Shown: one piece after another, positions 2,789 to 44,404 of the stretch
Numbering within the stretch: the first letter of the stretch is position 1
Layout of the letters: every line of letters begins with the position of its first letter
Assembly (NCBI RefSeq): GCF_003054705.1
Contig: NZ_QAYX01000017.1
Location: 1-64,000 of the forward strand
From: Opitutus sp. ER46
GTDB taxonomy: Bacteria > Verrucomicrobiota > Verrucomicrobiia > Opitutales > Opitutaceae
Direction of reading: 5' to 3'
DNA: 64,000 bases
Translations under genes and position numbers: made by a program
The notes under the pieces: generated by a model
Seen by the model: only the letters and a program-made list of their open reading frames with translations
The model's database searches: none
Told to the model about the DNA's origin: nothing

Positions 2789-3415
2789 TTCACATTGGGG
2801 GCGTGCCGTCGCGGCCGAGGGTTTTCGCACGCTGCTCGCGAAGCCGGTGGCGGGTTCTCGAATCCCATCGTGCCGTTTTTGAAGCGATCGCCCTCGGGGT
2901 ACCAACTCGATGGATGCAGGACCGCGCGCGGATTCGTGCGAGAAATCATGAGCCGTCCGATCGAGACACGCTCGAGTTTTTCGCATCGGCGCCTCAGTTC
3001 CCGCGTGAAACCGCCGCAACCTGCCGCAGAAAGTATCCGGACATTATCGCGGAGTATCCGGACATTATTCCGGAGTATCTGGACATTATTCCGCAAGTGG
3101 CCGGATGTCGGGTGGATATAATTGCAGCCCTCGTCCGCTGGGCTCCTGGGTTTTCGGCGGTCTCCGACTGTTTTCGTGAACGCGAACACAGCAAGGATCG
3201 GGCAGGGAAGTGACGGAAACGGAAGGAGGTTGGGCCGCAAGAAGGTGCAAGAGGCCCAAAGACGCAGGGCGGAGAACGCGCCCATCAGGGGCGCGTCGGG
3301 GCGGAAAGGGGCAAGTCGCAGCGCGGTTTTCCGGTAAAATGGCGCCGCCCATTCTCTGCCTCCTCCGCCCGTTCGTGAGCATCAGGACGTCAGCAGGGAC
3401 GCGGACGAATCCGGG
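2789..3415. other. 627-base stretch without a supported gene
   Basis: Six-frame reading gives only low-complexity arginine-rich frames. The only structure I see is the 21-bp tandem repeat at 3032-3094. Confidence 0.5.
3032..3094. repeat. Three tandem copies of a 21-bp unit
   Basis: Units begin at 3032, 3053 and 3074, each of the form AGTATCYGGACATTATNCCGG (fourth to last positions vary). Copies 1 and 2 differ at two positions and copy 3 carries T for C at one place. The unit is AT-rich relative to its surroundings. It keeps an open frame but nothing suggests it is translated. Confidence 0.85.
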
Positions 3416-12668: not shown

Positions 12669-12914
12669 GAGGGAGTGAGGGAAAGGGAGAGTGAGGGGCG
12701 GGCGGCGGGGGGAATAGGCCGCGTCGTGGTGAATAGAGTAAGTGTGGGGGGGCGGAAAGGGAGAAGACGGCCGGTGCGGGCCGGGGCCGGTCTTACTCTT
12801 TCTCCTACTCTTACTCTTTCTCCTACTCTTACTCTTTCTCTCGAACCTTCTCGGCCGGCGCGAGCGGGCCGAGAACGAGAACGGCCTTCGGAGTGAGAGT
12901 GAAAGTGAGAGAGG
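12669..12914. repeat. GAGNAA hexamer array with central hairpin (composite element)
   Basis: It fills most of the 343-base gap between the URO-D-like and methyltransferase-like genes. The pyrimidine arm (12791-12842) is built of CTCTTN-type hexamers with an 18-base higher period (TACTCTTACTCTTTCTCC). A GC-rich centre (12843-12885) follows, then a purine arm (12870-12914) with GAGAAC and GTGARA hexamers. A separate block of about 30 bases at 12669-12700 is a GTGAGGGA-type octamer run. The two arms are opposite in strand sense, so the whole can fold on itself. Confidence 0.8.
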
Positions 12915-17443: not shown

Positions 17444-17645
17444 GAAAGTGAAAGTGAGAGTGAGAGTAAAAGTGAGTGTGGACCGAGATGTGAGAGGGAA
17501 TGTGGGCGTGAAAGTGAGCGGCGGCGGAGCGGCGCGTCTGAGCGGCTGGTGTGGACCGGGAGGATGAGCGGCGAAGCGGCTCTGACACTCCGTCAGGGGC
17601 GCGGACTGCCGTGAGAGAGAAAGAGGAAGAGTAGGAGAAGGAACA
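17440..17645. repeat. GTGARA and GAGNAA hexamer arrays
   Basis: Two purine-rich blocks lie in the 320-base gap after the M14-like gene. Block one at 17440-17530 is built of GTGAAA/GTGAGA hexamers, starting within the gene's stop codon. Block two at 17611-17645 has GAGAAA-GAGGAA-GAGTAG-GAGAAG. No gene is seen in the gap (17444-17763). Confidence 0.8.
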
Positions 17646-21948: not shown

Positions 21949-22048
21949 ATCTTTCTCGTTCTCTTTCTCTTACTCTTACTCCCCCGCTCGGCGTGAACCG
22001 CCGAGCGAAGTTTGAGAGGAAGAGAAAGAGGAAGAGTAAGAGAAAGAC
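21949..22048. repeat. Composite GAGNAA element: pyrimidine arm, hairpin, purine arm
   Basis: The pyrimidine arm at 21951-21981 reads CTCGTT-CTCTTT-CTCTTA-CTCTTA. A perfect hairpin at 21985-22007 has arms CGCTCGGCG and CGCCGAGCG with a TGAAC loop. The purine arm at 22014-22048 reads GAAGAG-AAAGAG-GAAGAG-TAAGAG. The element sits between lpxK and the aminopeptidase gene. Confidence 0.9.
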
Positions 22049-27777: not shown

Positions 27778-27822
27778 TGGAGGGTGGCTGGGGCTGAGCG
27801 GGCGGCAAGCCGTGAGCCTCGA

Positions 27823-27955
27823 TCCCTCAGTCCCTCAATCCCTCAATCCCTCAATCCCTCAATCCCTCAATCCCTCAATCCCTCAATCCCTCAATCCCTC
27901 AATCCCTCAATCCCTCGAGAGAAAGAGGAAGAGTAGGAGTAAGAGAAAGAGGCGG
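27823..27955. repeat. Octamer array TCCCTCAA plus GAGNAA block
   Basis: Twelve head-to-tail octamers from 27823 to 27918: one TCCCTCAG, ten exact TCCCTCAA, and one TCCCTCGA. They are followed directly by a purine block (27919-27955) of GAGAAA-GAGGAA-GAGTAG-GAGTAA hexamers. The array is the most homogeneous repeat in the window and a likely length-variable locus. Confidence 0.95.
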
Positions 27956-28001
27956 AGGCGGCTTGACCCGTCTATAGGTTCACCCCCGAGGCTCATCCCC
28001 G

Positions 28002-32845: not shown

Positions 32846-32970
32846 CTTTCTCTTACTCCTACTCTTTCTCTTTCTCTCCGGAGCGGCGCCGAATGGCGCC
32901 GCGAAGCTGGGCGCGGAAGGAGAACGAGAAAGAGAAAGAGGAAGAGTATGAGAAAGAGGAACGAAGGCGG
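32846..32970. repeat. Composite GAGNAA element: pyrimidine arm, hairpin, purine arm
   Basis: The pyrimidine arm at 32846-32879 reads CTCTTA-CTCCTA-CTCTTT-CTCTTT. A perfect hairpin at 32883-32902 has arms GCGGCGCC/GGCGCCGC and a GAAT loop. The purine arm at 32919-32962 reads GAGAAC-GAGAAA-GAGAAA-GAGGAA-GAGTAT-GAGAAA. It has the same architecture as the element at 21949-22048. No gene is seen in the surrounding 360-base gap. Confidence 0.9.
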
Positions 32971-38777: not shown

Positions 38778-38887
38778 GAGAGAACGAGAAAGAGGGCGTA
38801 CGAGGGCGGGGTGCGGCGGACGGGTGACGATTGTCCGAGCGCCCCAGAGAAGGAGAACGAGAAAGAGAACGAGAACGAGAAAGAGGG
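38778..38887. repeat. GAGNAA hexamer arrays, purine strand only
   Basis: Two blocks: about 38779-38795 (GAGAAC-GAGAAA-GAGGG) and 38847-38887 (GAGAAG-GAGAAC-GAGAAA-GAGAAC-GAGAAC-GAGAAA-GAGG). They lie in the 279-base gap between the tautomerase and cupin genes. Confidence 0.85.
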
Positions 38888-38927: not shown

Positions 38928-39302
38928 TCAGATGGACGGAGTCTCCGCCGTCAGGATACGGATCACGTGATACGAGACCTGGCCGTCGCCGATGGCGCGC
39001 ATGCCGTGGAGGTCGTTGGCGGCGAAGAAGAGCAGGGAGCCGGGGCCGGCCAGTTCGACCCGGTCGTTAATCGTCACCTCGAGCGTGCCCTCCTTCACGA
39101 TGACGAGTTCCTCGTCGGGGTGACGATGGGCCTCATGGGCGCGTTCGCCCGGGTGGAGGGTGGTGGCGTGGCACTCCAGGTTGCGCATCGTGCGCGTCGG
39201 CCGGTCGAAGAAGTCGCGTCGTTCGCCCACGCGCGTGGGGATGGCGGGCAGCTTGGACCATTCATAGACAGCGGACGCGAGCAGTGACCGGGGGGAGGGC
39301 AT
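38928..39302 (-). CDS. Cupin-domain protein
   Basis: Predicted 124-residue single cupin barrel. CHATTLHPGERAHEAHRHPDEELVIVKEGTLEVTINDRV is cupin motif 1 with the metal His and Glu residues, and GSLLFFAANDLHGMRAIGD is motif 2. The usual call starts at 39302 (MPSPRSLLASAVYEW). However, the same frame stays open upstream through translated GTGAAA repeat into FRTLLALLLSAVIPVSAS, a good signal peptide. Such cupins are often exported, so the gene may originally have begun near 39410. The function is unknown. Confidence 0.75.
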   Translation of the reverse strand: MPSPRSLLASAVYEWSKLPAIPTRVGERRDFFDRPTRTMRNLECHATTLHPGERAHEAHRHPDEELVIVKEGTLEVTINDRVELAGPGSLLFFAANDLHGMRAIGDGQVSYHVIRILTAETPSI

Positions 39303-39531
39303 GGGCGAAGTGAAAGTGAGAGTGAAAGTGAGGGTGGAGGCGGAAACCGGAATGACGGCTGAGAGCAGAAGCGCGAGGAGGGTCCGGAAAGCTGCGGGCG
39401 GTTGTCGCAGATCCGGGGGCGCCGGGCGAGCTTTGGTCGGGGGAGCGTCCGGCCGGCACCCCACGAGGAGCCTGTCTGACGGCGCGCGGTTCGATCCCTC
39501 TCACTTTCACTCTCACTCTCACTTTTCCGCC
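39303..39531. repeat. GTGARA hexamer pair in inverted orientation
   Basis: A purine block at 39305-39340 (GTGAAA-GTGAGA-GTGAAA-GTGAGG) and a pyrimidine block at 39497-39531 (CACTTT-CACTCT-CACTCT-CACTTTT) flank about 155 bases. The order is purine first, opposite to the elements at 21.9 and 32.9 kb. The purine block directly abuts the cupin start codon. Confidence 0.85.
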
Positions 39532-39582
39532 TCCCTTTTGGCGCTGACATCTGGGTTTTCGCTGAGCACGGTTCGAAGCCTT

Positions 39583-40194
39583 GTGCCGCGCCTCGTCTTC
39601 CACCTCGTCGTCGTAACACTGGGTATCCTGAGCATGGGCTTTCAGTTGCTGGCCTCGCGGCTGCTGAATCCGCACTTCGGTTCGTCGATCATCGTCTGGG
39701 CGTGGCTGATTTCCACGTTCCTGGCGGCGTTCAGCATTGGCTCCATGGTGGGCGGCTGGATCAGCAACCTGCCGTCGGCGCCGCGGCGGCGTGGGCAATG
39801 GGTGGGTGCGGGGCTGGCGGTCGTTTCGCTGACGCTGACGGCGGCGTTTGGGCGCGCCTTGCTGGACCGAATCGAAGTCGCATTTCCAGACCTGAGCATC
39901 GGGCTGCTCGTTTCGTGTGTGAGCCTGTTCTTCGTGCCGGTCACGGCGCTGTCGCTGTTCAGTCCGCAGTGCGTGCAGTACCTCGCGAGCCACGGGACGC
40001 CGCCGGGTAAGGCCTCGGGTCTGGTCTATGGCGTGAGCACGCTCGGGAACATTGCCGGCGTGATGATGACGGCGTTCCTCCTGATTCCGCACTTCCGGGT
40101 ATCGACGCTGCTCTACGGCTGGCTGGCCGTGGCAGTGGCCAGCCTAGCGGTGTTGCTGCACCTCCTGCGTCCAGCCCCGGTCTCCTCCTCATGA
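39583..40194 (+). CDS. Membrane subunit of a split spermidine-synthase-like pair
   Basis: Predicted 203-residue membrane protein with about six transmembrane helices. GILSMGFQLLASRLLNPHFGSSIIVWAWLISTFLAAFSIGSMVGGWI is the N-terminal transporter-like half found fused to spermidine-synthase domains in many bacteria. Here it ends as a separate polypeptide that overlaps the catalytic gene by four bases (ATGA). I chose the GTG at 39583; ATG at 39634 would delete part of helix one. The pair probably forms a membrane-linked complex. Confidence 0.75.
   Translation: MPRLVFHLVVVTLGILSMGFQLLASRLLNPHFGSSIIVWAWLISTFLAAFSIGSMVGGWISNLPSAPRRRGQWVGAGLAVVSLTLTAAFGRALLDRIEVAFPDLSIGLLVSCVSLFFVPVTALSLFSPQCVQYLASHGTPPGKASGLVYGVSTLGNIAGVMMTAFLLIPHFRVSTLLYGWLAVAVASLAVLLHLLRPAPVSSS

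Positions 40195-42968: not shown

Positions 42969-44404
<1,436 letters not shown>

What the first reader, a model, noticed from the sequence alone, without database searches (positions are those of the whole stretch)
21949..22048. Composite element: pyrimidine arm, perfect GC hairpin, purine arm
CTCTTN hexamers, a 9-bp hairpin with TGAAC loop and NAAGAG hexamers follow in order. The same order occurs at 32846-32962 with a different hairpin (8-bp arms, GAAT loop) and loosely at 12791-12914. As the arms are near-complementary, the RNA or single strand would form a long imperfect hairpin. Two elements with the same architecture but different centres suggest a defined mobile or structural element rather than chance.
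Basis: partly seen in the sequence, partly recalled or inferred. Interest (0 to 1): 0.6.

Follow-up and report, generated by a model that had tools for sequence, protein, structure and literature searches.

The report
Hexamer-armed palindromic repeats in Opitutaceae
The odd 100-base palindrome is one of many dispersed non-coding repeats, apparently undescribed, scattered between genes in this bacterium and in at least 18 genera of its family, each built from two mirror-placed 34-base arms of six-base units; it looks like a REPIN/MITE-type selfish repeat with no transposase found for it.

Summary
Confirmed and extended. 21950-22047 and 32847-32960 are pyrimidine arm / centre / purine arm palindromes folding far better than shuffles (z -6.6 to -8.3). 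The 12791 copy is a hybrid with a weaker fold. They belong to a dispersed intergenic family: arm = GA(GAGNAN)5GA, usually exactly five hexamers. In 1.65 Mb of the genome sampled, 57 intergenic gaps carry arms; 33 of 33 inverted pairs have the same polarity, and no arm lies clearly inside a gene. An architecture pattern hits 40 of 252 Opitutaceae genomes (18 of 49 genera), 282 hits against 4 for reversed polarity, with one hit outside the family. Ends are sharp (..GAGAACGATT outside this genome), then similarity stops. The centre is variable and a strong GC hairpin is optional. Arms of one element are no more alike at the free N positions than arms of different elements; the GAG.A. core is nearly invariant. 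Sites are not conserved between species where tested. No clear target duplication and no Y1/RAYT transposase beside the arms. Best reading: a REPIN/MITE-like non-autonomous repeat with hexamer-coded arms, tolerated between genes. A terminator role is not supported by gene context but not excluded. It fails the REP definition.

The parts
21950..21981 (-). left (pyrimidine) arm; on the - strand a GAGNAN hexamer array with N code TTAAA
21985..22007 (.). centre: 9-bp perfect GC stem, loop TGAAC
22014..22047 (+). right (purine) arm, GA(GAGNAA)5GA, N code GAGTA
32847..32876 (-). second element, left arm
32883..32902 (.). second element, centre: 8-bp GC stem, loop GAAT
32920..32960 (+). second element, right arm (7 hexamers)
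12791..12841 (-). third, hybrid element: left arm of 8 hexamers with an 18-base superperiod
12891..12914 (+). third element: right arm made of GAGTGA/AAGTGA-type hexamers (another repeat family)
17617..17640 (+). solo purine arm between convergent genes
27817..27957 (+). CCTCAATC octamer array directly followed by a purine arm (27919-27950)
38847..38885 (+). GAGAAC/GAGAAA hexamer array

Best explanation
A non-coding, dispersed, palindromic intergenic repeat family of the Opitutaceae, working like a REPIN or MITE: the unit is a pair of inverted arms of about 34 bp (GA-[GAGNAN]5-GA; in other genera ending GAGAACGATT) around a variable centre. Shown: the fixed architecture, polarity, sharp ends, intergenic confinement, family-wide spread and the lack of positional conservation at the two sites checked. 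Inferred: new copies arise by a copy/insertion process acting on the folded single strand or on the arms as recognition sites; solo arms are halves or remnants; the GAG.A. core is kept because the spreading machinery (unidentified, not a neighbouring Y1 transposase) reads it in 6-base register, while N positions are free. Individual copies are probably tolerated rather than selected; when transcribed each adds a long imperfect hairpin near the 3' end of the upstream gene.
For: 578 hits of a 4-hexamer pattern in the genome (arrays count more than once). 57 gaps with arms in 1.65 Mb; inverted pairs 33 '<>' and 0 '><'; the only 6 arms outside called gaps lie within about 350 bases of the ends of sampled stretches. 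Exactly five hexamers in 45 of 77 arrays. 78 of 96 arms perfect at all 20 core positions, Markov control none, whereas hexamer position 4 is A/T/G-variable. Same architecture and polarity in other genera and in 40/252 family genomes, 282 hits vs 4 reversed-polarity controls; 1 genome outside the family in the phylum sample. Ends GA 61/70, then TT about 40/70, then background composition. In genome G031 copies are homologous over about 210 bp, the best at 79-88% identity. Orthologous gaps without it: lpxK-M29 gap in relatives, glucanotransferase-AraC gap in G002 and G019. In tandem gaps median 31 nt after the stop and 119 nt before the next start, the pattern reported for REPs (PMC3733652).
Against: No clear target-site duplication; no transposase beside arms; no exact empty site found (relatives too distant); solo arms are not significantly more decayed than paired ones, unlike REP singlets; N positions of partner arms do not covary and the G031 alignment gives no covariation support, so that folding is what matters is not shown.
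Confidence: 0.6

Rival explanations
1. Bidirectional transcription terminator or insulator: because polarity is always pyrimidine-first on both strands, a transcript from either side first emits a C-rich, G-poor tract (Rho-type loading site) and then a hairpin.
For: Fixed polarity; position just after stops, median 31 nt; 0 of 33 tandem gaps with arms also carry a canonical terminator against 31 of 367 without; at 21949 it lies 17 nt after the lpxK stop, upstream of a TTGCG/GTTAG promoter-like block visible in relatives.
Against: No clear excess in convergent gaps and about as frequent in divergent gaps, where there is no 3' end (9/78, 33/400, 15/162). The 0/33 is close to the 2.8 expected. 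Most same-genus genomes lack the family. Fixed polarity follows from any palindromic element.
Confidence: 0.15
2. Arms are protein-binding arrays (nucleoid, segregation or regulatory protein) read in 6-bp register; hairpin formation is incidental.
For: Invariant GAG.A. core with free N positions; fixed five-unit length; solo arms about as well conserved as paired ones; no covariation between arms.
Against: Paired arms always inverted at 20-300 bp; patchy distribution among relatives is odd for a housekeeping protein; no candidate protein identified.
Confidence: 0.13
3. Locally grown satellite hairpins: short tandem repeats plus inverted duplication by replication slippage and template switching, without mobility (slippage has been proposed for tandem heptamers in other bacteria, PMC4679880).
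For: Hexamer alphabet reshuffled between arms; other tandem-unit families with inverted arms in the same genome (GAGTGA, octamers); a relative has an analogous (TTGAGAG)n palindrome in the same lpxK-M29 gap.
Against: Five-unit arm length, one core sequence shared by many sites and 18 genera, sharp conserved ends, full-length homologous copies in G031.
Confidence: 0.1

Closest known systems
REPINs (REP doublets forming hairpins; PMC3116915)
   Same: Inverted doublets of a conserved short arm around a variable spacer, intergenic, singlets plus doublets, high copy.
   Different: Arms are purine-rich hexamer arrays, not palindromic REPs; no GTAG-type tag; no Y1/RAYT gene beside them; spacer length not fixed (21-295); partner arms do not covary.
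GTAG/CGTC REPs, including those of Opitutus terrae (PMC3733652)
   Same: Same host family and same intergenic niche near upstream 3' ends; in G031 the hexamer elements are bracketed at 8-19 bp by a GTGG-CGCGGGCG..CGCCCGC palindrome, apparently like the O. terrae GTAG-20 type (majority GTGG).
   Different: The hexamer arms themselves carry neither tag nor palindrome; the passages of the paper that were searched do not describe them.
MITEs / Correia-like elements
   Same: Short non-coding element with terminal inverted repeats and sharp ends.
   Different: No reproducible target-site duplication and no matching transposase found.
Tandem heptamer intergenic repeats (PMC4679880; cyanobacterial STRR, recalled)
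   Same: Short-unit tandem arrays between genes.
   Different: Those are mainly direct repeats; here arrays have a preferred unit number and often come as inverted pairs of one polarity.

Membership tests
REP / REPIN | short extragenic repeat, high copy | tested here: met
REP / REPIN | doublets organised as inverted repeats forming a hairpin | tested here: met
   33/33 inverted pairs with one polarity; fold z -6.6 or better for the two main copies
REP / REPIN | each repeat is itself an imperfect palindrome with a GTAG/CGTC-type tag | tested here: not met
   the arm is purine-only apart from the N positions and cannot self-pair; ends are GAGAAAGA or GAGAACGATT
REP / REPIN | repeat flanks RAYT/Y1 (or TIRYT) transposase genes | tested here: not met
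   0 of 13 Y1 loci in own genome and 0 of 30 loci in 12 element-bearing genomes, within about 1.5 kb
REP / REPIN | compensatory changes keep the hairpin | tested here: not met
   partner-arm similarity 2.12 vs 2.05 permuted, p 0.34; covariation term unfavourable (+1.77) in the G031 alignment
MITE | terminal inverted repeats with sharp ends | tested here: met
MITE | target-site duplication | tested here: inconclusive
   2-bp excess at one offset, driven by homologous G031 copies; own genome 7 vs 3.3, p 0.04 uncorrected
MITE | shares its ends with an autonomous transposon | tested here: inconclusive
   no recurrent near-identical gene beside 57 arm-bearing gaps; only part of the genome sampled
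Intrinsic terminator | GC hairpin followed by a U tract at gene 3' ends | tested here: not met
   no T run after the purine arms; no clear bias to convergent gaps
Rfam RNA families | match above a curated score | tested here: not met
   no family at gathering score; only sub-threshold miRNA-precursor matches

The most novel reading that the evidence does not exclude
An unrecognised class of bacterial mobile repeat whose terminal arms are read as a degenerate hexamer array (GAG.A. in 6-base register, preferred number of units) by a spreading machinery that is not a Y1/RAYT transposase, active or recently active across the Opitutaceae.
Probability: 0.25. Interest if true: 0.65.

Novelty: new variant of a known kind. 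Interest (0 to 1): 0.45.

Why it matters
It adds a dispersed repeat family, apparently undescribed in the literature searched, that spans at least 18 genera and has a built-in puzzle: a hexamer core nearly fixed while two positions per hexamer are free. If mobile, it implies a dissemination mechanism other than the known RAYT-REP pairing, testable by population sequencing of a cultivated Opitutaceae strain. Practically, such repeats break assemblies and can mislead terminator or sRNA predictions in this group.

Tried and rejected
RAYT/Y1 mobilisation by neighbouring genes: no arms near 13 own and 30 relatives' Y1 loci. Compensatory RNA structure: not supported. Target-site duplication: not convincing. 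Canonical terminator: no U tract, no convergent bias. Known RNA family: none. Recurrent adjacent gene: none near-identical. Degenerate partner for solo arms: mostly no better than on the opposite flank. Empty-site test in genus g66: the sampled loci shared no clear orthologous site. Literature: no paper in the held library was found to describe the hexamer element; subscription literature was not searchable.

Full report
WHAT IS THERE. The element at 21949-22048 is as described: a 32-base pyrimidine arm, a 9-bp GC stem with loop TGAAC, and a 34-base purine arm. The element at 32846 has the same order with another centre. The 12791 copy has a long pyrimidine arm, a GC-rich hairpin and a right arm of another hexamer type (GAGTGA/AAGTGA). 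Folding is far better than dinucleotide shuffles for the first two on both strands and as DNA, weaker for the third. The 15-base core pattern occurs 32 times in the window against 0.08 expected. No Rfam family reaches its threshold.

CONTEXT. The host is a member of the Opitutaceae (Verrucomicrobiota): the M29 peptidase beside the element has its best matches at up to 87% amino-acid identity in Opitutaceae MAGs. The element at 21949 lies between lpxK and an M29 aminopeptidase, the one at 32846 between a 4-alpha-glucanotransferase and an AraC/PocR regulator, the one at 12791 between divergent genes.

GENOME-WIDE FAMILY. A 4-hexamer pattern hits 578 places in the 5.71-Mb genome (arrays count more than once). 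In 1.65 Mb read as stretches (plus the window), 95 arms were found. 57 intergenic gaps carry arms: 30 as one inverted pair, 26 as a solo arm, one as a triple. Every close inverted pair is pyrimidine-first (33 of 33). The six arms outside called gaps are all near ends of sampled stretches, where gaps cannot be called. Gaps of at least 100 bp carry arms at similar rates whether convergent (9/78), tandem (33/400) or divergent (15/162); the difference was not formally tested. In tandem gaps the element sits a median of 31 nt after the stop and 119 nt before the next start, as reported for REPs (PMC3733652).

THE ARM. The arm is GA(GAGNAN)nGA with n = 5 in 45 of 77 arrays. The core is nearly invariant: 78 of 96 arms have all 20 core positions, and the score distribution is bimodal. 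Position 4 varies between A, T and G; the commonest code is TAGTA. Arms of one element are not more alike at N than arms of different elements (2.12 vs 2.05 matches, p 0.34). So the complementarity comes from both arms being copies of one motif in inverted order, not from element-specific co-evolution. In G031, where 12 homologous copies could be aligned, the covariation term is unfavourable.

THE CENTRE. Centres range from 21 to 295 bases. A perfect stem of at least 8 bp is present in 24% of pairs against 8% of control segments. Recurrent modules are GAGAAC repeats next to GC hairpins, and CCTCAATC octamers placed directly inside a purine arm.

RELATIVES. The same polarity and hexamer logic occur in other genera with other N letters. 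An architecture pattern (pyrimidine array, 20-50 bases, purine array) hits 40 of 252 Opitutaceae genomes in 18 of 49 genera, 282 hits against 4 for the reversed-polarity control (my sum of the listed counts, which include overlapping registers). In the phylum sample only one genome outside the family has a hit. Ends are sharp: after the array, GA in 61 of 70 ends, TT in about 40 of 70, then background. In G031 about 20 copies align over up to about 250 bp, the best at 79-88% identity, and many are bracketed at 8-19 bp by a REP palindrome GTGGCGCGGGCG..CGCCCGC. That resembles the GTGG-tagged GTAG-20 REPs reported for O. terrae (PMC3733652), so in that genome the element may travel as the interior of a REP pair.

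ARE SITES CONSERVED? No, where tested. The lpxK-M29 region of over 30 relatives lacks GAGNAN arms; one of the nearest relatives has there an analogous palindrome built from another unit, (TTGAGAG)n. The gap of the 32846 element holds other repeats in G002 and G019. Most same-genus genomes have few or no arms. This fits lineage-specific gain but is not an exact empty-site proof.

MECHANISM. Shown: a defined, repeated, palindromic, intergenic unit with sharp ends and fixed polarity. Inferred: spread by copying. Not found: a target duplication, a transposase beside the arms or a recurrent neighbouring gene. The most likely reading is a REPIN/MITE-like non-autonomous repeat whose arms are read in 6-base register by an unknown machinery. 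A terminator role is the main functional rival: pyrimidine-first polarity on both strands would suit Rho loading, but gene context does not favour it. Membership in REP/REPIN fails on the palindromic tagged unit and on RAYT linkage, although the architecture works like a REPIN.

VERDICT. Real, apparently undescribed in the literature held here, of moderate interest. A new variant of short interspersed palindromic repeats rather than a new kind of system, unless the hexamer-reading machinery proves to be new.

Noticed in passing
L171:2585-3154 (G000:C22 about 370846-371415): CRISPR-like array: at least 9 copies of GTTTCAATCCGCGCGCCCACGAGGGGCGCGAC at 65-68 base spacing, about 0.85 kb from a Y1/RAYT transposase gene.
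   Followed up: partly
window 3032-3093; L171:415-498 and 2242-2325: Repeat family TCCGGACATTAT, often followed by GGGCTGCAATTAT; a copy of the module lies on each side of one RAYT gene (L171), so it may be that transposase's REP family.
   Followed up: partly
window 39283-39602: Second inverted hexamer-array family, (GAGTGA/AAGTGA)n, with the opposite polarity (purine arm first); also at C17 208806 and C24 sample 49033.
   Followed up: partly
window 42970-43030: Tandem palindromes of the type ATAACTAGCCA..TGGCTAGTTAT, a further intergenic repeat family in this genome.
   Followed up: no
L040, about 2246-2505: In this near relative the orthologous lpxK-M29 gap carries a different composite palindrome: (TTGAGAG)n arms around a GC hairpin, purine-rich arm first.
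   Followed up: no
L180-L189: In G031 many hexamer elements are bracketed at 8-19 bp by GTGGCGCGGGCG..CGCCCGC REP palindromes, possibly a REP-plus-hexamer composite unit.
   Followed up: partly
L315:1943-2111: Nested concentric inverted hexamer arms (outer GAGAAC type, inner GAGAAA/GGAAAGAG type) in genome G121: an onion-like palindrome.
   Followed up: no
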